DNA of 64,000 nucleotides from Myrmaecium sp. VS I D KN 1 (lineage: Eukaryota; Ascomycota; Dothideomycetes; Valsariales; Valsariaceae): assembly GCA_019775845.1 (NCBI GenBank), contig JADQAV010000008.1:806001-870000 (forward strand). The letters are read 5' to 3'. The notes beneath the pieces were generated by a model. It made no database searches and was not told where the DNA came from. It saw only the letters and a list, made by a program, of their open reading frames with translations. Made by a program: the position numbers and the translations under genes. This document shows positions 20,103 through 63,008 of this stretch, one piece after another (position 1 is the first letter of the stretch; each line of letters starts with the position of its first letter).

Positions 20103-22617
20103 CTACCTCTGCAGCCCACCACTCCCCGCCTGCCCTCCCAAGCCCATCCCACCACCATTCGTACCCGCCGCGCCACCAGCAGCACCAGCAGCACCACCAT
20201 TACCACCAGCCATAAAAAACATCGTTTCCGGCATGAGATCCAGCGGCCACGGCCAATCATCAAACAACTCGGGCGGGAGTTGGAACTCACTCAGGTCCTC
20301 CATTGCCCCAGCGGTGCTGGACCCTCCCAGGGAGCCGCTGGGTGTCTCTGGACGACGAGCGGTTGCTGAAGGAGGAAGGGCAGAAGGAGGAGGAGGAGGA
20401 GGAGGAGGAGGAGGAGGAGGAGGAGGAGGAGGGAGGCCGTCGTACATGACTGCCGAGGGGGTCTGTGCCAGAGGAGAAGGCGCGGAGCTGATGCTGCTTC
20501 GGGGGGTGCCTGCGGAGGAGAAGGGCGGGGAGTGTTGCAATATCGGTTGGCCTCCTGCCATTGGCGGCTGTGGCTGCTGCCGCGACGGCGCCTGTCGCAG
20601 CGAACGCTGCGGCCTAGCTCCGCTCGTGCGGAGATTCCCCCGCGGCCGCATCCGTTCGCTCATATACTCGTCGATCCGTCTGACCTGCCGTCGCAACGCA
20701 TCGCTCGTGCCCGCCGTCTTGCTGAGGCCGCTCTCCAGCGATTCCAGCAGATCCGCGATGCTGAGGATCATCGTTCGGACGCCCTGGTAACTTTCTTCTC
20801 GCAGCGGCCCCTCCATGACCGAACCGAGGATGGTGCCGATACCGGCGAGGTGGTAGATCAGCGGCGTGCTGATGGCGCGAAGGTACGCGACCGGTATGGT
20901 CTGGAAGACGGCCAGCAGCTCCGCGGCCACGGCGACCTTCTGGGCGCTCACGTCGTGGTAGCCTCCGGCGCCGTGGCTCACGGCTGCGGGACCTTGCTCG
21001 CTCGAGAAGAAGACCATGCGGAGCAGCTGCAGGGTCGCCTGGATGTTGGCGGACTGGAAGCCGAAGATGTCGCAGTTGCGATCGCCGGTCAGGGGAAGCG
21101 TTTCCTTGAACTGCTGCGGAAGCAGCGAGTATTGTTCGGTGAGCTGGGCCAGGATCGCCGAGGAAGGGATGGAGTAGGTGCCGAAGAGGGAGGAGACGTC
21201 GATGCGGTTGTCCATGCCCCGGGTGTGCCGCGAGCGTAACCGCACCAGGGCTTGCTCCAGGATGAGGTAGAGGTCCGTGGTGAAGTTCCAGCCCCGGAGC
21301 CAGCATACCGCGGTGGGGGAAGGCATCGTCGCGACCGGACCGATGTATTCGTCGTCGACCTCGGAGGGATAGTGCACCCGCGCGCAAGCTCCTTGGGCAT
21401 GGACACTGCCGTTCCAAACGATGGACGTATACACATCGAGCGTGAACGTGGACCAGTAAAGCCGGCGCCGCTCCTCCACTTCCACGTTCGAGATGTCCTT
21501 GGGCCAAAACGCCTCGTCGTGAAGGCGCTCAATCCCCGCGATGGTAAAGTAACGCCCGACATGATTCTGCATCGCCTCCACATCGCCGTACTGAATACTC
21601 GTAATGGCAAGAAGCGCACACGCTCGCATATAATCCAGCCGGCGAGCGGCCGTAAGGTCGCGGGGCACCGCATCCTCCGCAGCCGCATAGAACGTCTCGG
21701 ACGATATGCTCGTCAAGTACGCCGCATCAGCCGCCACCGGACCGTACAGCGCCCCGTCGCGGGCGCGGGCAGACGCAAGCGCGCACGCGGCCATGACCGA
21801 CGCGAAGCAGCCCCGATCCTCGAGGTACTCCCGACTCCGCAGCTTCTCCAGCAGCGTCGATCGGTGGAAGAAAGGGAATCTGGAACATCGGGAAAAATCA
21901 GCGGACTGTGCCTACCTCTGTGCGCCTCTCTCTCTCTCTCTCCCGGTGGGGGGGGGGGGGGGGGGGGGGGGGGGGGNNNNNNGGGGGGGCTTGCGGGGCC
22001 GGTTTCATACATCGGATAGATCACCGCGAAATACACATCGATCAGCGCCACGATCGTGCTCGCGCAGCCCGCCGCGAATGATCTCCATGGTAGACTGGGC
22101 GCCTCGCGCGTGTTTGGATCGGCGGACAATCCCACGGAGGGGCTCGGCAGCGCTCCGCGGGAAGAAGAGGGCGTGCATTGCACGGCCGGATCGCTGGCCG
22201 AGGAAGACTGCTGGCTTTTCAGCGCAGCAGGATATCCCGGCGAGCTCCCCGGCGCCCTTGGGACAGTGGCTTGCGGTCTTGCCGCTCCCGCCCGGCCCCT
22301 CTTCATCGGCCGGTCAAAGGTGCACGCGAGGTCGAAGTCGCAGCAGTTCTGACAGCGGCCACCGCCGCCGCCGCCATCGGCGACGACGACGTGGCCGGAC
22401 GCGCTCGGCGGCGGGCGACATTTGATGCTCCGGCGGTGACAGAAATCACCTGGTGGACTGAGATTAGGGAAGGGGGGCTTAAAGGCTTGAAGGCTTGGAG
22501 GCTTGGAGGCTTGGGGAAGAAACGCAGGTTGAAATGAAATGGAAAGTCGAGGATGGTGCGGCACGTACAAGCCCGGGACGTCCGCAGCAGTTTCCGTGGC
22601 CTCTCATCGGGCGGCAT
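20103..22617 (-). CDS. Zn(II)2Cys6 fungal transcription factor with an unusually long zinc-cluster loop
   Basis: Exon 1 22617-22569, intron 22568-22450, exon 2 22449-22011, intron 22010-21880 (contains a homopolymer and a 6-N gap), exon 3 21879-20103; 754 aa, with the frame closed through both junctions. The first splice joins RTSRA to CDFCHRRSIKC and completes the cluster C-x2-C-x6-C-x21-C-x2-C-x6-C. The 21-residue third loop includes six glycines. The second splice gives YPIFPFFHR at the start of the middle homology (fungal-specific TF) domain, with ASVMAACALASARARDG, LDYMRACALLAITSIQYGD and RRRLYWSTFTLDVY. The C-terminus has a 16-Pro run and an acidic/aromatic patch (EFQLPPELFDDWPWPLD), a plausible activation domain. 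It is nuclear and probably dimeric. Genes for a sugar transporter and an anhydro-sugar kinase follow immediately, so local regulation is likely (inference). Confidence 0.9.
20384..20434. repeat. GGA trinucleotide repeat encoding poly-proline
   Basis: About 16 GGA/GAG units on the plus strand. Read on the minus strand they encode the poly-Pro run of the transcription factor. Confidence 0.9.
21948..21989. repeat. G homopolymer with a 6-N assembly gap, inside an intron
   Basis: 29 G (21948-21976), NNNNNN (21977-21982), then 7 G (21983-21989). A CT/TC dinucleotide run adjoins it at 21926-21943. It lies wholly within the second intron of the transcription factor gene (21880-22010), so it does not affect the protein. 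The true length is unknown. Confidence 0.97.
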
Positions 22618-23187
22618 GGCATCCGTCCATCCTCCCCCGCTCCCGGAATGGTGAGATGGCTGTGCCGGATGCAGGGCGGTGAGTTCGAGTTCGGTGGAGC
22701 TTAGGTCTGATGTGAGGAGGGAGTTGAGTGCGAGCTGGTGTGCGTTGATTCCGTTGATCCCTTTTCGGTGAGTGAACGGGACCGCGAAGGAGCCCGGGGA
22801 TCGCAATGATAAAGATGAAGATGAAGCGGATGGCCCAGCAGATTATACATTTCGCTTCCAAGCACGTGAACAGGTGAAGTTAGTAGATTAGTCTCAACCC
22901 CACATCCCGGTCTGCTCCGGTTCCGCCGATTCGGTTGAGTTGGCGCTGTGGCGGGGTGCGCGGCGGATCTGGGGAAGGAACGATCCATGATGGGCTAGCC
23001 GGTTCCGCAAGTGCGGAGCGGGTCCAGCCACTTCATTAGTCATCTCCATCATGATCCTTCAAGTCTCGACATCATTCTACGACGGTATGGCTTGAAATCG
23101 ACGTCTTTCTATCGAGATTCCTTTCGATGAATAATATGTACAAAATCAAGGGGCTACAAGACCACATCCGCCTCTCCCTCCTCATCA
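22618..23187. other. Intergenic: regulator promoter and 3' flank of the transporter
   Basis: No coding sequence recognised. A short GCTTGGAG/GCTTGAAG tandem motif lies just downstream at 22481-22512, within intron 1 of the regulator. The promoter is otherwise plain. Confidence 0.6.
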
Positions 23188-24964
23188 TCATACGTCCTCG
23201 GCATGCTTCAGCTGCCTTTCCTTCTCGAAGCTGACTCTGTCCACCTCCGGGATGCCTTCGTTGGCCAGGACATCGCCGTGTTCGCGGTAGGCCTGTTCCA
23301 TCTTCCAGTTGAAGGGGCTCCCGGTCGAAAAGAGCGCATCAATGGACTCCAACGAACGATCGGCAGTTTCAGGATAAACTAAGGTGAAGAAGGGGGTGTT
23401 AGTCACGTTATGAGGCAAATCAAGCGGTCTCGCAACCGCACTGGCAAGTCAATCATCACTCACAGAGATATATCACCGGAATCCACAACAGATTGAGTCC
23501 CGCGAAGAGGAAGTACGTCCGATTCTCGAGTTGTGAGAACATGATGGGGTTCACCAAGACCGTCATGCCGACGCCGATGGCCCAGCCGGTGATGCCGAAG
23601 CCGTTGCCCTGCGCGCGCATGTCGGAGCTCCAGATCTCTGTCGGGATGAGGAAGGCGACGGTGCCCCAGGTGGCGGCGTAGACGAGGTTGAAGAGGAACA
23701 GCATGGCGACGGCGGCAGGGGCGTACTGCCCCGCTTTCTCCGGGTGGGCGCGGGATGCTTCGTACACGGAGGCGGCGATCAGGTTGACGGCGAAGAGCCC
23801 GGCTGCACCGGACATGAGGCATACACGGCGACCCAGTCGATCCACGATCTGGGCGCTGATGATCGTTCCGACAATGCCTACGGTGTTTAGACCGCCAGCG
23901 AGGCCGTTTTGCGTGAGCGTGCTGTAACCTGCTGCCTTCAGGAGGGTTGGTGAATATGCCGTTACAGCCGTGATGCCCGTCCAGGAAGCCATGATCTGAA
24001 GGATCAGACACAGCCAGGCGCGGCGGCCCAAGTGGTGACCTGGTTTTCCTCCTTTTCCGACCAAGATCTTTGCAAACTGCCAGGGTGATGATCGCGTGGA
24101 GGATTTGGCCACGGCAACGATCTCCAGGAACTCCTGCTCGACTTCCGGGTTATAGGAGCCGCGAACGTGGGTGAGCACTTCGCGGGCATCGTCGTAACGG
24201 CCGACGGAAGCGAGGTATCGCGGGGAGTCCGGAAGCGCTCGCACACCGAGGAGCAATATGAGGGCGGGTATACACTGGAAAGCGAGGAGAAAACGCCAGC
24301 GGATGTCGGAATAACCGTTATTGATGAACGAAAGACCGAAGGAGAGCCAGTAGGCGATCGAGATGCCAAGATAATTGGCGATGAAGACGTAGCCCAAGAA
24401 GCCGCCTCGATGGCTCGCAGTTGACGTTTCAGACACCAGTACGGGCGTGATCCCTGTGAGAGCCCCGGTTCCCAGGCCGGTAACCACGCGGGCAATGAGG
24501 ATAAAATCGGAGGACTGAGTGGCTGCTTGGAGAGCACCGCCGATCAAGGCGAATACGGCGCCAATCCAAAGACTGCTATATTGTCAGCGGGCGCTGCGGA
24601 GAGTAGCTAATACTGGGCTTTCCTCACCCATTGATTCGACCGATCCGATCGGCCAACCAGCCGCCGATGAAACAGCCAACGATACAGCCCAGGTAGTAGA
24701 TTGAGACGATGCCACCCTCATGCAGGGTGTCGGTGACGGTGCCGTCCGCTTCGCCAATCCCCACCTTATGCACGTAACGAGGGGCGCTGTTCACTCCACC
24801 CATGACTCCTTGGTCATAACCTTCGAAGAAGATGCTGTCGCTGGCGTTAGCAGTTGCTTTGACACGGAGGCTGGCAAAGGAGCTTACGAGATCAGAGAGA
24901 ACGTCTGAATGGCTGCATTGAGCTGGTTAGGGCTCAGCCTCTTCCAGAAGTCGAAGTAACCCAT
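23188..24964 (-). CDS. MFS sugar porter family transporter
   Basis: Exons 24964-24888, 24834-24628, 24572-23464 and 23378-23188, with introns of 53, 55 and 85 nt; 527 aa, the usual sugar-porter length. The sequence starts MGYFDFWKRLSPNQLN, then shows FFEGYDQGVMGGV (TM1), GGWLADRIGRING (the loop 2-3 D-R-x-G-R signature), PDSPRYL (the PESPR-like motif after TM6), a central cytosolic loop, DRLGRRVCLMSG (loop 8-9) and IPTEIWSSDMRAQGNG (the PxEx3-like motif after TM10). Twelve hydrophobic segments are visible. It is a plasma-membrane sugar/H+ symporter or facilitator by family. The substrate cannot be read from sequence, but the divergent neighbour is an anhydro-sugar kinase and the next gene is a Zn2Cys6 regulator, so co-regulated uptake of the same sugar is plausible. 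Confidence 0.93.
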
Positions 24965-25679
24965 CCTGTGGGTATGAGTTCGACAAAGCAACGAAACGGC
25001 AGAGATGGACTGTTGAATGAAAGTAAAGTGGAAAGAAATGAAGGGAGAATATTGTGAATGACCGCCTCGTCTGGAGCGGACGAGCCGGGGGTTATATACT
25101 AGGGAAATAATTGGAGGCTCATGATGGAGATGGTGCGTAGTTCGGGACGGATATAAGCCCAACGAAATCGTGGAGAGGCCCTGACAGCCTGGGGAAGAGC
25201 CTTTTCCCGCACCTCCGATTCCCCGCAAGGGAATTGGGGAGGGTGAACCCCGTGGTATGGCGGGGCGAAAGCCGCTTAAGCGTGTTGCCGCGTTGCCGTG
25301 AGGCGGGGTGTGTGGGGTATAACCGTGTAGCCGCGTAGCCGCGTAGCCGCACAGCTTCAGTACAGTCGCGGAGGGCCTGCTGACTTTCAGTGAGTTCTAA
25401 GACCTCGAGATGTCAATAAATCTTGACGAACTCACCGTACTAGGGACGGTAGTGGTCCGCCGCATGTGACCAAGCCCACATATTCACGTTGCCCCTGCCT
25501 CACGTCTTAAACCCGTCCCCATATAACCTAGGCCGTCCACTTCCCCCAAGATCCGTGACTGTATACTCGTCCTCTCTTCTCTTCTTCCCTTTTTTTTTCC
25601 TCGAGCAGTCTCTCCTTGTAGTGGCTTCACAGCACTCAACATCTTCTTCTCTTTTGCTCATATACCCCATTCGCTCGCT
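24965..25679. promoter_or_regulatory. Divergent promoter shared by transporter and kinase
   Basis: 715 bp between two start codons. TATA-like words lie about 130 bp upstream of the transporter ATG (TATATAAC on the minus strand near 25091-25098) and about 155 bp upstream of the kinase ATG (ATATAACC near 25522). Six CreA-type SYGGRG sites lie at 25170-25175, 25189-25194, 25221-25226 (reverse), 25260-25265, 25303-25308 and 25312-25317. Five 8-bp GTWGCCGY units sit at 25284, 25292, 25327, 25335 and 25343, giving CCG direct repeats spaced by 5 bp. The pattern suggests glucose repression and a zinc-cluster site (inference). Confidence 0.6.
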
Positions 25680-27118
25680 ATGGCACAGGGTCAGGTAAAT
25701 GGCCATGCGAATGGTCACGCCAATGGCCAGACAAACGGTCACAAGGAAAGCGAGCCCCTCGAGCTGACGGTACTCGGGCTGAACTCGGGGACCTCGATGG
25801 TATGTTGAATCGCCCACAGGCGCATACGGGGTCATCTATCACCATTGCGGCAACAGACGAGCTGACATTTCCCGAGGATGGCATTGACTGTACGCTCTGC
25901 CGCTTCCGCCAGGAAATGCCCGAGTCACCAATGCACTTCGAGCTGCTCGAATACGGCGAGATCCCTCTTCCCCAGCCCATCAAGAAGCGCGTCATGGAGA
26001 TCATCCTGCACGATCAGACGTCCGCTTCTGGACTGTCCGAAGTGAACGTGATTCTGGGAGAAACCTTCGCGGACGCGGTGGAGCAGTTCTGCAAGGAGCG
26101 GAACATTGACAAGAGTACCATCGATGTCATCGGATCCCACGGCCAGACGATCTGGTTGCTCTCCATGCCCGAGCCCGGCCAGGTCAAATCCGCGCTCACC
26201 ATGGCCGAAGGCTCCTTCCTAGCCGCGCGGACCGGCATCACAACCGTGACCGACTTCCGCGTGTCCGACCAAGCGGCCGGCCGTCAAGGCGCTCCGCTTA
26301 TCGCCTTCTTCGACGCCCTCCTCCTGCACCACCCGACGAAGCTCCGCGCATGCCAGAACATCGGCGGCATCGCCAACGTCTGTTTCATTCCCCCAGACAC
26401 GCACGGCGGCGTCGCGGAGACGTACGATTTCGACACGGGTCCGGGCAACGTCTTCATTGACGCCGTCGTGCGGCACTATACCGACGGCGCGCAAGAGTAC
26501 GACAAGGACGGCGCGATGGGCGCCCGCGGCACCGTCCATCAGCCCCTCGTCGACGAGTTCCTCCAGCACCCGTACTTCCAGCTCGACCCGCCCAAGACGA
26601 CCGGCCGGGAGGTCTTCCGGGACACGCTCGCCTTCGAGCTGATCGCCAAGGCGGAGCAGCTGGGCCTCCGCCCGGACGACGTCGTCGCCACCGTTACCCG
26701 CATCACGGCCCAGGCGATCGTGGACCACTACCGGCGCTACGCGCCCGCCGGCCTCGAGATCGCCGAGCTCTTCATGTGCGGCGGCGGGGCTTACAACCCC
26801 AACATCACCGCTTACATCCAGAAGCACTACCCCCAAACCCGTATTCGTATGCTCGACGACGCTGGCATCCCTGCCGGTGCCAAGGAGTCCATCACATTCG
26901 CCTGGCAGGCTATGGAAGCCGTTGTTGGCCGGAGCATTCCCGTCCCTACCCGTGTCGAGACTCGGCGGGAGTACGTCCTGGGCAAGGTGAGCCCGGGGGA
27001 GAACTACCGGAAGGTCATGGCGAGAGGGATGGCTTTCGGTGCTGGCCGGGACCATCTGAGTCCCGTGAAGGAGATGGTCAATTATGTGGGCGGGAAGGTG
27101 TTTGATAACAAGTGGTGA
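25680..27118 (+). CDS. AnmK-family anhydro-sugar kinase (levoglucosan kinase candidate)
   Basis: Exon 1 25680-25799, intron 25800-25876 (GTATGT...CCGAG, branch CTGAC), exon 2 25877-27118; 453 aa. The splice creates the ATP-binding signature [12 protein letters not shown]. Further motifs are [58 protein letters not shown] (the Asp at residue 226 is the likely catalytic base), MCGGGAYN and [17 protein letters not shown]. These are the motifs of AnmK (anhydro-N-acetylmuramate kinase), which both hydrolyses the 1,6-anhydro ring and phosphorylates O6. Fungi lack peptidoglycan, and the characterised fungal member is levoglucosan kinase of Lipomyces starkeyi, which makes glucose 6-phosphate. That substrate, or scavenged bacterial anhydro-MurNAc, is inferred. 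The N-terminus has an [15 protein letters not shown] repeat of about 20 residues, probably disordered. The gene is divergent from a sugar transporter. Confidence 0.9.
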
Positions 27119-59901: not shown

Positions 59902-62483
59902 CTAAACCCCAATCTCCTTCTTGACCCACTTCTCCAAACCACCGCACGCAATGATCTCCTGGACGTTCGGGGGCAACTCGCCCACCTTCTGGCTCCACGT
60001 CGCGCCGCCCTCGCCCTCGGTGACGGTGACCTTGCTCCGACGGACGTCCCACTCGAGCGTCCAGCCGGTGCGGCGGGTGAGGACCTTCTCGGCCGGAGCC
60101 GGAGGCGCCGGCGGAGGCGAGTCCAAGCTCTGCTTGTTCTGGGTCGGTTCGGAGACGGGGCGGGTGTCGGGCTGGCTGGTGGCGGCGGCGGCAGCAGTAC
60201 CGCCGAAGTGTTCGCGGAGACGGTGGGCCAGCTTGGGGACCTCGACGCCCATGAGGGCGTTGTTGATGGAGTTGCGGGAGAAGATGTTGCCGAAGGAGCC
60301 GGCGACGACGAGGGGGATGCCCTTGGCCAGGATGGCGGTGGCGGCCTGCTCGCGCGAGGAGCCGCAGCCGAAGTTGAAGCCGGTGGCGAGGATGTCGCCC
60401 GCCTGGGCGATCTCCCGGAAGGCCTTGTCGTAGTTCTCCATGCACACCTCCGCCATCTTCTCCTTCGTCACGTCGTCCTGGTAGGTGTACTTGCCCGGGT
60501 AGATGCCGTCCGTGTTGATGTTGTCCGCGTCGCAGAAGACGATCTCGCCCGAGATCTTCTCCGGGAAGCCCGGCAGGATCTCCGTCAGGGACTCGGCCGA
60601 CTCGGACGGGGGAGCGGCGGATGTGGAGGCGCTCTCGGTCGCGCCGAACGCTTGTTCGCCGGACTGAATCAGCTCATCCGCTTCCTTGATGATCTTGTCA
60701 AGTGCGTCCTCGATGCTGATCATGCGTTCCTCTTCCTTGACACCATCACCCTCGCCGCGAACGACGCCCTGGTAGTTCTCCGGCGCCTCGTACCACCCAG
60801 GGCCTGCGATTTTTCCGGTCAAGGCACTGGCGGCCACAACTTCGGGGCTTGCGAGGTACGCCTTGGCATCAGTGGAGCCCATGCGCCCCTTGAAGTTACG
60901 GTTGCTGGCGCTGATACCGACCTCGCCGGGCTCGAGCAGACCGGTCCCCAGGCCGATACATGGGCCGCAACCGGACGGCAAAGCCTGAGCACCAGCCTCC
61001 AGCAGGACTTGCCAATCACCCTGCTCCTCAGCTGCGCGCTGTTCCAGAACGGAGGCGGCCGCAATGTAGAAGTTGACGTGTTCCGGAATCTTGGGAATCT
61101 GGCCGTTGTTCTTCTCCGCCGCATCCTTGAAGACCTTGGCAGCAGCAGCGATATCCGAGGCACGGGAGTTCGTGCAAGAAACAAGGTAAGCCTTGTTAAC
61201 CTTGATGTTCTGGTCTTCGAGCTCCTTGAGCGGCGTGGCGACCTTGACGGAGTTCGGACCAGCAACGTACGGCGAGAGTGAGGAGAGGTCAAGGTAGAAC
61301 TCTTTAGCATACTCAGCTCCCTTATCGGCGGCCAGCTTATTCTCAAAAAGAGCATCAAGCCGCTGGTGGTTGAAGCGTTCTGCGATCGGCTTTCCAGCCT
61401 CGTACAGAGCAGCATCCGTAGCTTTGGCGCGTAGCCATCCTTGAAGGACGGAGTCGATCGGGAAAAGTCCGCTCAAAGCTCCCCATTCAGTCGTCATGTT
61501 GGCGATGGTCAGACGGTCGTCAACGGGTATACTCCTCATGGTCTCATCAGCGCCGGTGAATTCAATCGCGTGATTCAGCACCTCGTCCTTGTTGAAAAGA
61601 CCGCAGAGGGCGACGATAACGTCTTTTCCCGTGACGCCCTTGGGCAATGTGCCGGTGAAGGTGATCTTAGCGATCGGCGGAATCTGCCACCAAGTGACAC
61701 CTCGCGCCCAAATGGCGGCGGCGTCTGTCCGCACAACGGGTGTGCCCAAGCAGCCAACACCGCCGTACATGTTGGTGTGGCTGTCAGAAGCGACAGCGAG
61801 CGTGCCGGGCCATGCGTAGCCTTCCTCAACCATGATCTGGTGCCCGATACCACGGCCGGCCGGATAGAAGACCACGCCATGTTTCTTCGCGAATTCTTCG
61901 ATCTGCCTATACTTCTGCAGATTCTTCTCGCTCTTGTTCTGAACATCGTGGTCCAAAGTCATCACCAGCTGCTCCGGGTTATGTATCCTGGAACCTCCCA
62001 GGCTCATGAACTTGAGCGCCACCGGCCATGAATTGTCGTGAGTCATGCAGCGGTGAGGTTGGAGGGTGACATAGTCTCCAGACTTCACGTACTTTCCGGG
62101 CGCGAGTCCGACGGAGTACTTCTGTACGATCTTCTCGGTCAACGTCTGCGGGACGGCCGCCGACTTCTGGAAGGTGGAGAGGAACGGTGCGGCGGAGGGA
62201 TCCTCAAGTTGGGAGTGGAAGACATCATGTTGTTGCTCGCGAGCGCATGAGATCCTCGCGAACTGTCTCACGGCGTGCGTTCGGGGTATGGGGGAAGGAG
62301 ACGGTCGGATCGCCAGACTTGTCCGGAGCTGCCGTGGGCGTAGAACATTAGCACGATGTCGGAGAGTCACGAGCGCAGACGGAGGAAGGAAGAAGAGTTG
62401 GCGCCGCAGAATGTGAGCGGAAGAGAACTCACCAGGCCGGCGCGACGGGTCAGCAGCCTCGCTGCTCGTAGGGACATGGCCAT
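59902..62483 (-). CDS. LYS4: Homoaconitase, mitochondrial
   Basis: Exon 1 62483-62433, intron 62432-62329 (GTGAGT...CGGCAG, branch GCTAAT), exon 2 62328-59902; 825 aa. Reading through the intron would give an open but implausible N-terminus; the spliced one ([21 protein letters not shown]) is a classic mitochondrial presequence. The aconitase domains show [42 protein letters not shown] (homoaconitase-type), [21 protein letters not shown] and [10 protein letters not shown] (the three 4Fe-4S cysteines). The swivel domain follows ([31 protein letters not shown]). It converts homoaconitate to homoisocitrate in fungal lysine synthesis. A Pro/Ala-rich linker of about 40 residues precedes the C-terminal [17 protein letters not shown] segment. 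Divergent from phosphoserine aminotransferase. Confidence 0.96.
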
Positions 62484-63008
62484 TGACACGGTGGCATATG
62501 CGCGCGAGAGCAGTGATTGTGTGGCGGAAGAAGAGGACAGTCGCCGCCCGCGGACGAAGATATCGGACTGCTACTATGGTACCCCGGATTGTACGATAAA
62601 TTACTTGCGCTAAGCGGCCTCCCACATAAGCCGATTTCGGCCTCCGTCATTGGCTCGCGAGCCTCCCCGGCAGCCGCCCCGTGTTCCCCTCGAGCATCAG
62701 AACGATATCCTACGGGATCGAATGCTTCGCCCGTTGCCTGCTGCTCCCTCCATCCGCCGCCGTAGCCATCGCCAGCCAAATCGTGGATTGGCAGCGCCGA
62801 TGATCCCTGGGCGGAGCCTGCGGCGATTGTCCGAACTCGGGCGGGGCGGGACCGGTCCAGTCATCGCTCATTTCTACCGCGGCGGAAAATGACAGCGGCT
62901 GGTACGAGACGGACCTGATCCTGTCTCTCCCTCACAATCGCAACTCACACCCGCATTTTCTTGGAATCCTCCCCTCTCCTCCTTCATACTCAGAGCCGAG
63001 CCGTCGAC
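62484..63008. promoter_or_regulatory. Divergent promoter, LYS4 and SER1
   Basis: 525 bp between two amino-acid biosynthesis genes. CCAAT boxes appear in reverse (ATTGG near 62650 and 62786), and a GC-rich GGGCGGGGCGG lies near 62841-62851. No TGACTCA (Gcn4/CPC1) site was found by eye. Confidence 0.5.

What the first reader, a model, noticed from the sequence alone, without database searches (positions are those of the whole stretch)
20103..27118. Candidate anhydro-sugar (levoglucosan) utilisation module: regulator, transporter, kinase
A Zn2Cys6 regulator, an MFS sugar porter and an AnmK-family kinase lie side by side, the last two divergent. Fungi lack peptidoglycan, and the known fungal AnmK relative is levoglucosan kinase of Lipomyces starkeyi, which converts 1,6-anhydroglucose to glucose 6-phosphate. 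A linked transporter and regulator would make a compact, self-regulated pathway for a pyrolysis sugar, or alternatively for scavenged bacterial anhydro-MurNAc. Gene identities are read from motifs; their joint role is inference.
Basis: partly seen in the sequence, partly recalled or inferred. Interest (0 to 1): 0.78.

Follow-up and report, generated by a model that had tools for sequence, protein, structure and literature searches.

The report
Fungal gene trio for burnt-cellulose sugar
Three neighbouring fungal genes (an enzyme, a sugar transporter and a switch protein) tend to stay together in many moulds and very probably form a dedicated pathway for eating levoglucosan, the main sugar left by heated or burnt plant matter.

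Summary
At 20103-27118 lie a Zn2Cys6 regulator (-), an MFS sugar porter (-) and a divergent AnmK-family kinase (+). The kinase is 77% identical to the solved levoglucosan kinase of Lipomyces starkeyi (328 of 427 positions) and 36% to a bacterial AnmK. In other moulds with readable gene numbers, kinase and porter are neighbours in 7 of 8 assemblies, porter and regulator within two genes in 10 of 11, kinase and regulator in 3 of 4. Published tables show the trio in two Zymoseptoria species and the kinase next to an MFS gene in A. nidulans. Gene order varies, and in Penicillium porter and regulator lineages match in 10 of 10 linked pairs. The porter lacks the usual glucose-binding residues. At the site where Gln to Ala lets yeast Gal2 take up more levoglucosan it has Ala, and the 120 best relatives have Ala or Gly. 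No MurQ partner for an anhydro-MurNAc route reached its cut-off in the genome. The kinase chemistry is known. A fungal levoglucosan transporter or regulator was not found in the open papers searched. Substrate, induction and regulator target are inferred, not shown.

The parts
20103..22617 (-). Zn2Cys6 regulator, 754 aa; exons 22617-22569, 22449-22011, 21879-20103; zinc cluster CDFC...CQNCCDFDLAC at residues 17-59, spread over exons 1 and 2
   Evidence: gene model; Fungal_trans PF04082 56.4 bits; 366 database relatives; Cys spacing
23188..24964 (-). MFS sugar porter, 528 aa; exons 24964-24888, 24834-24628, 24575-23464, 23378-23188
   Evidence: Sugar_tr PF00083 298.3 bits; model of an ortholog matches GLUT3, STP10 and XylE
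23984..23989 (-). codons for A291-S292, in place of the canonical Gln-Gln of TM7 (STP10 Q295-Q296)
   Evidence: alignment; A 109 and G 11 at 291, S 119 and A 1 at 292, of the 120 best homologs; codons checked
23651..23653 (-). codon for F403, in place of the canonical Trp of TM10 (STP10 W410)
   Evidence: F in 120 of the 120 best homologs; codon checked
24965..25679 (.). 715-bp divergent promoter shared by porter and kinase
25207..25349 (+). six CCG-N5-CCG direct repeats (starts 25207, 25215, 25288, 25323, 25331, 25339): candidate regulator sites, unproven
   Evidence: 6 against a shuffle mean of 0.60, 0 of 300 shuffles reach it (motif chosen after reading the sequence); CCGYGTWGCCGYG occurs 9 times in the genome, 3 of them here, against 8 for the pattern read backwards
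25680..27118 (+). levoglucosan kinase of the AnmK family, 453 aa; exons 25680-25799, 25877-27118; Asp226 of DTGPGN lines up with position 212 of 4yh5

Best explanation
This is a three-gene catabolic module for levoglucosan (1,6-anhydro-beta-D-glucopyranose). The sugar porter takes levoglucosan into the cell. The kinase opens the 1,6-anhydro bridge and phosphorylates it in one ATP-dependent step to glucose 6-phosphate, which enters glycolysis. The Zn2Cys6 protein switches porter and kinase on from their shared divergent promoter when the sugar is present. Shown here: gene structure, family membership, conserved linkage, matching porter and regulator lineages, and porter pocket changes. Known from print for relatives: the kinase reaction, and use of levoglucosan by Penicillium, Alternaria and Aspergillus species. 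Inferred: that this porter carries levoglucosan, that the regulator controls the two genes, and that the 8-bp CCG repeats are its sites.
For: Kinase: 738 bits and 77% identity (328 of 427) to L. starkeyi levoglucosan kinase, against 188 bits and 36% (130 of 357) to Shewanella AnmK. At 96 of 96 positions where the 120 best fungal rows are nearly invariant and the Shewanella AnmK differs, this protein and L. starkeyi LGK agree. The R. toruloides row is 75% identical and the S. salmonicolor row 73%; an R. toruloides enzyme gave 10.65 against 1.25 U/mg background in yeast, and S. salmonicolor LGK purification is cited in print (reference titles). Linkage: gene numbers and shared contigs and published tables; an A. 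fumigatiaffinis predicted protein that runs from kinase into regulator. Co-evolution: two Penicillium lineages of porter and of regulator match in 10 of 10 linked pairs. Porter pocket: A291 where Gal2 Q341A raised levoglucosan consumption 10.4-fold; A or G in the 120 best relatives; of 20 paralogs in this genome that cover both TM7 positions, only one out-of-register row shows no Gln at either. No MurQ over cut-off in the genome. Fungi 'appear to exclusively use' LG kinase.
Against: No expression, transport or binding data. Gal2 Q341A and W455A also improved growth on glucose, and the double mutant was worse than either single one, so a small residue at this site is not specific for levoglucosan. 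The module porter has Phe, not Ala, at the second site, and Phe there is not unusual (6 of 22 paralogs). A. niger, L. starkeyi, M. guilliermondii and K. imperatae kinases were near background in the same yeast assay (1.67-1.89 against 1.25 U/mg; S. stipitis 2.98). Linkage exceptions: P. brevicompactum N7541 (kinase and porter apart), P. verhagenii N7454 (porter and regulator apart), P. manginii kinase against regulator; in A. glaucus CBS 516.65 the listed kinase and porter are on different contigs, and in A. spectabilis the listed porter and regulator are on different short contigs. The CCG repeat is partly a tandem array and could be neutral; four-fold CCG-N5 arrays occur at 58 places in the genome.
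Confidence: 0.8

Rival explanations
1. The module salvages 1,6-anhydro-N-acetylmuramic acid or related anhydro-muropeptide sugars released from bacteria; the kinase acts as a true AnmK.
For: The family is named for this reaction and the DTGPGN motif is shared with AnmK. Bacteria share the habitat (general knowledge).
Against: The known route needs MurQ etherase to go on from MurNAc 6-phosphate (recalled); the only match to TIGR00274 in the genome scores 24 bits against a cut-off of 302 and is a double-SIS protein, probably glucosamine-6-phosphate synthase (the search is blind to introns). The kinase sides with L. starkeyi levoglucosan kinase at 96 of 96 diagnostic positions. MurNAc is bulkier and charged.
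Confidence: 0.07
2. The module serves a wider or different set of anhydrosugars (cellobiosan, mannosan, galactosan, or an anhydrosugar made by enzymes in living tissue), levoglucosan being only one substrate.
For: Porter or regulator rows include fungi whose names I recall as plant pathogens or lichens (Pleopsidium; Lambiella, Bathelium), where fire is not an obvious source. Cellobiosan use by a soil fungus is reported. The porter pocket has lost its usual polar ligands, so specificity may be loose.
Against: The kinase is close to enzymes assayed on levoglucosan. No hydrolase for cellobiosan was found among the 20 window ORFs scanned.
Confidence: 0.2
3. The linkage is inherited gene order with no shared function.
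For: Some assemblies show the genes apart, and no control with arbitrary gene trios could be run.
Against: Adjacency spans Dothideomycetes and Eurotiomycetes, for kinase and regulator a Leotiomycete (Leptodophora), and for porter and regulator two Sordariomycetes (classes recalled); gene order differs (porter-kinase-regulator in P. canariense, regulator-porter-kinase here) yet the genes stay together; porter and regulator lineages match.
Confidence: 0.05

Closest known systems
Levoglucosan kinase of Lipomyces starkeyi (PDB 4yh5) and fungal 'AnmK' of Rhodotorula toruloides
   Same: 77% identity to 4yh5 over 427 positions, 75% to the R. toruloides row; same catalytic motif
   Different: No linked transporter or regulator was reported for them in the open papers searched; this enzyme has not been assayed
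Bacterial levoglucosan clusters (lgdA-lgdB1-lgdB2-lgdC with ABC or MFS transporters and LacI/ROK-type regulators; PMC10066097 passages)
   Same: Same architecture of catabolic enzymes plus transporter plus regulator for the same sugar
   Different: Bacteria oxidise levoglucosan by a dehydrogenase and several further steps; this module uses one kinase step, an MFS sugar porter and a Zn2Cys6 regulator
Fungal catabolic gene clusters with a pathway-specific Zn2Cys6 regulator (such as quinate or proline clusters; recalled)
   Same: Regulator, permease and enzyme linked in one locus
   Different: Only one catabolic enzyme; substrate is an anhydrosugar
Bacterial AnmK/MurQ peptidoglycan recycling
   Same: Kinase family
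   Different: 36% identity to the Shewanella AnmK; no MurQ over cut-off in this genome

Membership tests
Fungal levoglucosan kinase (LGK, AnmK family) | Sequence closer to assayed LGKs than to bacterial AnmK | tested here: met
   738 against 188 bits; 77% against 36% identity and 96 of 96 diagnostic positions
Fungal levoglucosan kinase (LGK, AnmK family) | Catalytic Asp in DTGPGN (role recalled) | tested here: met
   Asp226 lines up with position 212 of 4yh5
Fungal levoglucosan kinase (LGK, AnmK family) | ATP-dependent conversion of levoglucosan to glucose 6-phosphate | not testable with these tools
   needs an enzyme assay; shown for relatives only
Peptidoglycan-recycling AnmK pathway | MurQ etherase present in the same organism | tested here: not met
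   best match 24 bits, cut-off 302; a double-SIS protein
Canonical hexose porters (STP/GLUT/HXT) | Glucose ligands Q295, Q296, N301, N332, W410, N433 of STP10 (roles recalled) | tested here: not met
   A291, S292, T297, G328, F403, G429 (the last lies beside a gap); profile alignments to STP10, GlcP and STP6, read by eye, agree for the TM7 pair and the TM10 Trp
MFS sugar porter superfamily | Sugar_tr domain and fold | tested here: met
   298.3 bits; model of the Alternaria ortholog best matches GLUT3, with STP10 and XylE among the first nine
Conserved catabolic gene cluster | Linkage kept across divergent species despite rearrangement | tested here: met
   exceptions named in the report; no random-trio control
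Conserved catabolic gene cluster | Genes co-induced by the substrate through the linked regulator | not testable with these tools
   no expression or binding data
Zn2Cys6 regulator | CX2CX6CX(5-16)CX2CX6-8C zinc cluster (consensus recalled) | tested here: inconclusive
   all six Cys present, but the third loop is 21 residues against 9-11 in the 104 of 120 relatives whose motif could be read

The most novel reading that the evidence does not exclude
The porter defines a dedicated anhydrosugar permease subfamily whose glucose ligands have been traded for a small, less polar pocket (A/G-S-W-T-G in TM7, F in TM10). The regulator-porter-kinase cassette moves between fungi as a unit, and its presence in plant and lichen fungi points to a biological, not only pyrolytic, source of 1,6-anhydrosugars.
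Probability: 0.2. Interest if true: 0.8.

Novelty: new member of a known kind. Interest (0 to 1): 0.62.

Why it matters
Levoglucosan is part of a large natural carbon flux (about 100 million tons of anhydrosugars a year from biomass burning, PMC4752346, abstract start in the listing) and a biofuel feedstock. The kinase is known, but energetic differences such as ATP-consuming transport of the sugar in A. [quoted passage not shown] A conserved porter and regulator beside the kinase give named candidates for both gaps. They also give a prediction for AN3498 and AN3499 of A. nidulans that can be tested at once.

Tried and rejected
Anhydro-MurNAc salvage: tested by looking for MurQ; none reached its cut-off. 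A larger cluster: of 20 long window ORFs scanned (stop-to-stop frames, not gene models), 7 carry a Pfam domain (PUF, CCDC90-like, Sld7, DEAH helicase, RWD/IBR, PAP2, aconitase) and 13 none, so nothing speaks for more than three genes. A close bacterial homolog: one scan of genome contigs gave 3 loci at 25-29% identity only; the scan uses exact peptide words and would miss distant kin. Autoregulation through the CCG repeat: 0 CCG-N5-CCG in 22618-23190, upstream of the regulator. CreA-like SYGGRG sites (consensus recalled) are somewhat enriched in both intergenic stretches (9 against a mean of 4.27, 8 of 300 shuffles reach it; 8 against 3.63, 6 of 300), but the G-rich sequence makes this weak. 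Gene order in relatives at DNA level could not be read: no fungal genome collection was open to me, so linkage rests on gene numbers, contig lengths and two papers. A 2015 JBC paper that I recall as the LGK structure paper is not held. Structure prediction gave fold matches but no distances, so the pocket argument rests on sequence alignment.
Full report
WHAT IS THERE. The window lies in contig C64 of a 25.66-Mb fungal assembly. Gene models built by hand from the sequence give a kinase of 453 aa (exons 25680-25799 and 25877-27118, +), a sugar porter of 528 aa (exons 24964-24888, 24834-24628, 24575-23464, 23378-23188, -) and a regulator of 754 aa (exons 22617-22569, 22449-22011, 21879-20103, -). 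All proposed introns have GT-AG ends. Pfam gives AnmK 297.5 bits, Sugar_tr 298.3 bits and Fungal_trans 56.4 bits. Porter and kinase diverge from a 715-bp promoter. Of 20 long window ORFs scanned, 7 carry a Pfam domain and 13 none; the nearest on the left is Sld7, an aconitase-family gene lies at the far right, and none looks like part of this pathway. In the kinase tree (71 rows, one per named species) and the porter tree (115 rows) the window protein sits with Alternaria, Ascochyta and Paraphoma relatives, so the source is probably a Pleosporales-like mould; it was not identified further.

THE KINASE IS A LEVOGLUCOSAN KINASE BY SEQUENCE. Against solved structures it scores 738 bits to L. starkeyi levoglucosan kinase and 188 bits to Shewanella AnmK: 328 of 427 (77%) and 130 of 357 (36%) identical residues. 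In an alignment with the 120 best fungal relatives, 179 columns that the AnmK also covers are nearly invariant (at least 117 of 120). The AnmK shares 83 of them; at the other 96 the window protein and L. starkeyi LGK agree with each other. In print: the R. toruloides enzyme showed 10.65 U/mg against 1.25 background in yeast extracts, while the A. niger, M. guilliermondii, K. imperatae and L. starkeyi enzymes gave 1.67-1.89 and S. stipitis 2.98 there (PMC9476349, parts 1-3 of 5 read). Penicillium, Alternaria, Aspergillus, Lipomyces and Rhodosporidium species are reported to use levoglucosan (PMC4752346 passages), and A. oryzae turns it into malate (PMC5651581 passages). The genome search gave one kinase of this family. 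The only match to MurQ, needed after a true AnmK, is a double-SIS protein at 24 bits against a cut-off of 302.

LINKAGE IN OTHER FUNGI. The three database searches list the best 120 of 7995, 961 and 366 hits; 78, 114 and 107 rows carry a species name. I compared gene numbers and contig lengths for species present in two lists. Among assemblies with positional gene numbers in both lists, kinase and porter are consecutive in 7 of 8 (P. canariense, P. manginii, A. chevalieri, P. herquei, P. angulare, Elasticomyces, Recurvomyces; not P. brevicompactum N7541). Kinase and regulator are within two genes in 3 of 4 (P. canariense, Leptodophora, P. cosmopolitanum; not P. manginii, whose listed regulator sits with another porter copy). 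Porter and regulator are within two genes in 10 of 11 (not P. verhagenii N7454). P. manginii and P. canariense also list a second, distant porter or regulator copy. Counting by species instead, a shared contig is seen for kinase and porter in 13 of 19, kinase and regulator in 9 of 14, porter and regulator in 26 of 37. Most of the rest come from different assemblies and say nothing, but in A. glaucus CBS 516.65 kinase and porter, and in A. spectabilis porter and regulator, are listed on different contigs of one assembly. No contig length was shared between rows labelled as different species. In P. canariense the three numbers are consecutive in the order porter, kinase, regulator, unlike regulator, porter, kinase here. 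Two papers that were about something else show the same by their gene tables: Zymoseptoria tritici G1889-G1891 and Z. brevis contig42 g00010-g00012 are kinase, porter and transcription factor (PMC7317419 Table 1, passages; 'levoglucosan' does not occur in its text), and A. nidulans AN3498-AN3499 are a putative MFS transporter and the kinase (PMC8762651 Table 2, passage). One predicted protein of A. fumigatiaffinis runs from kinase (residues 14-437) into the regulator (437-1014) without the zinc cluster, probably a merged annotation of neighbouring genes.

THE TRIO EVOLVES TOGETHER. Penicillium has two porter lineages and two regulator lineages. In 10 of 10 linked pairs, lineage 1 goes with lineage 1 and 2 with 2 (read by eye; chance 1 in 252 for a 5/5 split). 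The A. aculeatus kinase and regulator, on one contig, each fall inside otherwise mostly Penicillium clades. Aspergillus kinases as one clade are rejected (p-AU 2.2e-08; the group was named after seeing a tree), which fits transfer but also old duplication with loss. Trees 45 (71 of 120 regulators, chosen by genus, P0340 left out) and 46 used the quick method.

THE PORTER. Aligned to STP10, the positions recalled as glucose ligands, Q295, Q296, N301, N332, W410 and N433, read A291, S292, T297, G328, F403 and G429; the last lies beside a gap. Q177 falls on F159, where the register is less sure. Profile alignments to STP10, GlcP and STP6, read by eye, place the TM7 pair and the TM10 Trp in the same way. 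Across the 120 best relatives position 291 is A (109) or G (11), 292 is S (119) or A (1), 297 is T (118) or S (2), and 403 is F in all 120. Yang and co-workers found that Gal2 Q341A or W455A raised levoglucosan consumption 10.4- and 10.7-fold. The spacing of their residues (341, 342, 346, 347; 446, 455) fits STP10 Q295, Q296, I300, N301 and F401, W410; Gal2 itself was not aligned here and that mapping is inferred. So the module porter has, by nature, the Ala that opened Gal2. Against over-reading: both mutants also helped on glucose and the double mutant was worse than either; the module has Phe, not Ala, at the second site. For the window genome's other porters I had loci for 30 of 67 matches, plus those, together 24 further places. 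Of these, 20 cover both TM7 positions: 14 have Gln at 291 and 18 at 292. The only one of the 20 lacking both (C15:243k) is out of register; a further one (C42:37k) has Ala at 291 and a gap at 292, and three do not cover TM7. Phe at 403 occurs in 6 of 22 others, so that change alone is not special. A model of the Alternaria ortholog (pLDDT 78.8, pTM 0.82) best matches GLUT3, then STP10 and XylE.

REGULATION. The porter-kinase promoter holds six CCG-N5-CCG direct repeats (shuffle mean 0.60, 0 of 300 reach 6), and the 8-bp CCG period is seen 6 times against at most 3 in 500 shuffles; the motif was chosen after reading the sequence. CCGYGTWGCCGYG, taken from this promoter, occurs 9 times in the genome, 3 of them here; the pattern read backwards occurs 8 times, so genome-wide it is not enriched. 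Part of this is a short tandem array, and four-fold CCG-N5 arrays occur at 58 places in the genome while that pattern read backwards gives 264, so the repeat may be neutral. It is a candidate for a binding test, no more. It is absent upstream of the regulator.

COMPARISON AND NOVELTY. Bacteria use a dehydrogenase pathway with ABC or MFS transporters in the same clusters; fungi 'appear to exclusively use' LG kinase (PMC10066097 passages). Nine literature searches in the open library (listings and passages seen, not every paper opened) showed no fungal levoglucosan transporter or regulator and no account of this linkage; subscription papers and preprints are not in that library. The module is a new member of a known kind, the fungal catabolic cluster, for a substrate whose fungal uptake and control appear undescribed there.

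HOW SURE. That the three genes form one functional unit: about 0.93. That its main substrate is levoglucosan: about 0.8. That the CCG repeats are the regulator's sites: about 0.35.

Noticed in passing
22300-22450 (regulator exon 2): The third loop of the zinc cluster is 21 residues with a Gly-rich insert, against 9-11 in the 104 of 120 relatives whose motif could be read; Pfam's Zn_clus model does not report it.
   Followed up: partly
21948-21986: Poly-G run with a 6-N assembly gap inside regulator intron 2; coding sequence is not affected by this gene model.
   Followed up: yes
database row P0022: A levoglucosan kinase labelled Lyophyllum shimeji (a basidiomycete) groups with Thermoascus moulds in the kinase tree (96/72 support): horizontal transfer or contamination.
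   Followed up: no
database rows P0014, P0297, P0192: A. aculeatus kinase and regulator (one contig) and the A. wentii porter fall inside Penicillium clades, suggesting that the cassette moves between genera.
   Followed up: partly
database row P0340: A. fumigatiaffinis has a 1014-aa predicted protein that runs from levoglucosan kinase into the regulator and lacks the zinc cluster; probably an annotation merge of neighbours.
   Followed up: partly
literature, PMC4632067: In the elm-disease fungus Ophiostoma novo-ulmi a gene annotated as this kinase is up in mycelium (logFC 3.67; passage), a hint of regulation unrelated to pyrolysis sugar.
   Followed up: no
59905-62646: Aconitase-family gene (PF00330, 368.9 bits) at the right of the window, probably unrelated.
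   Followed up: no
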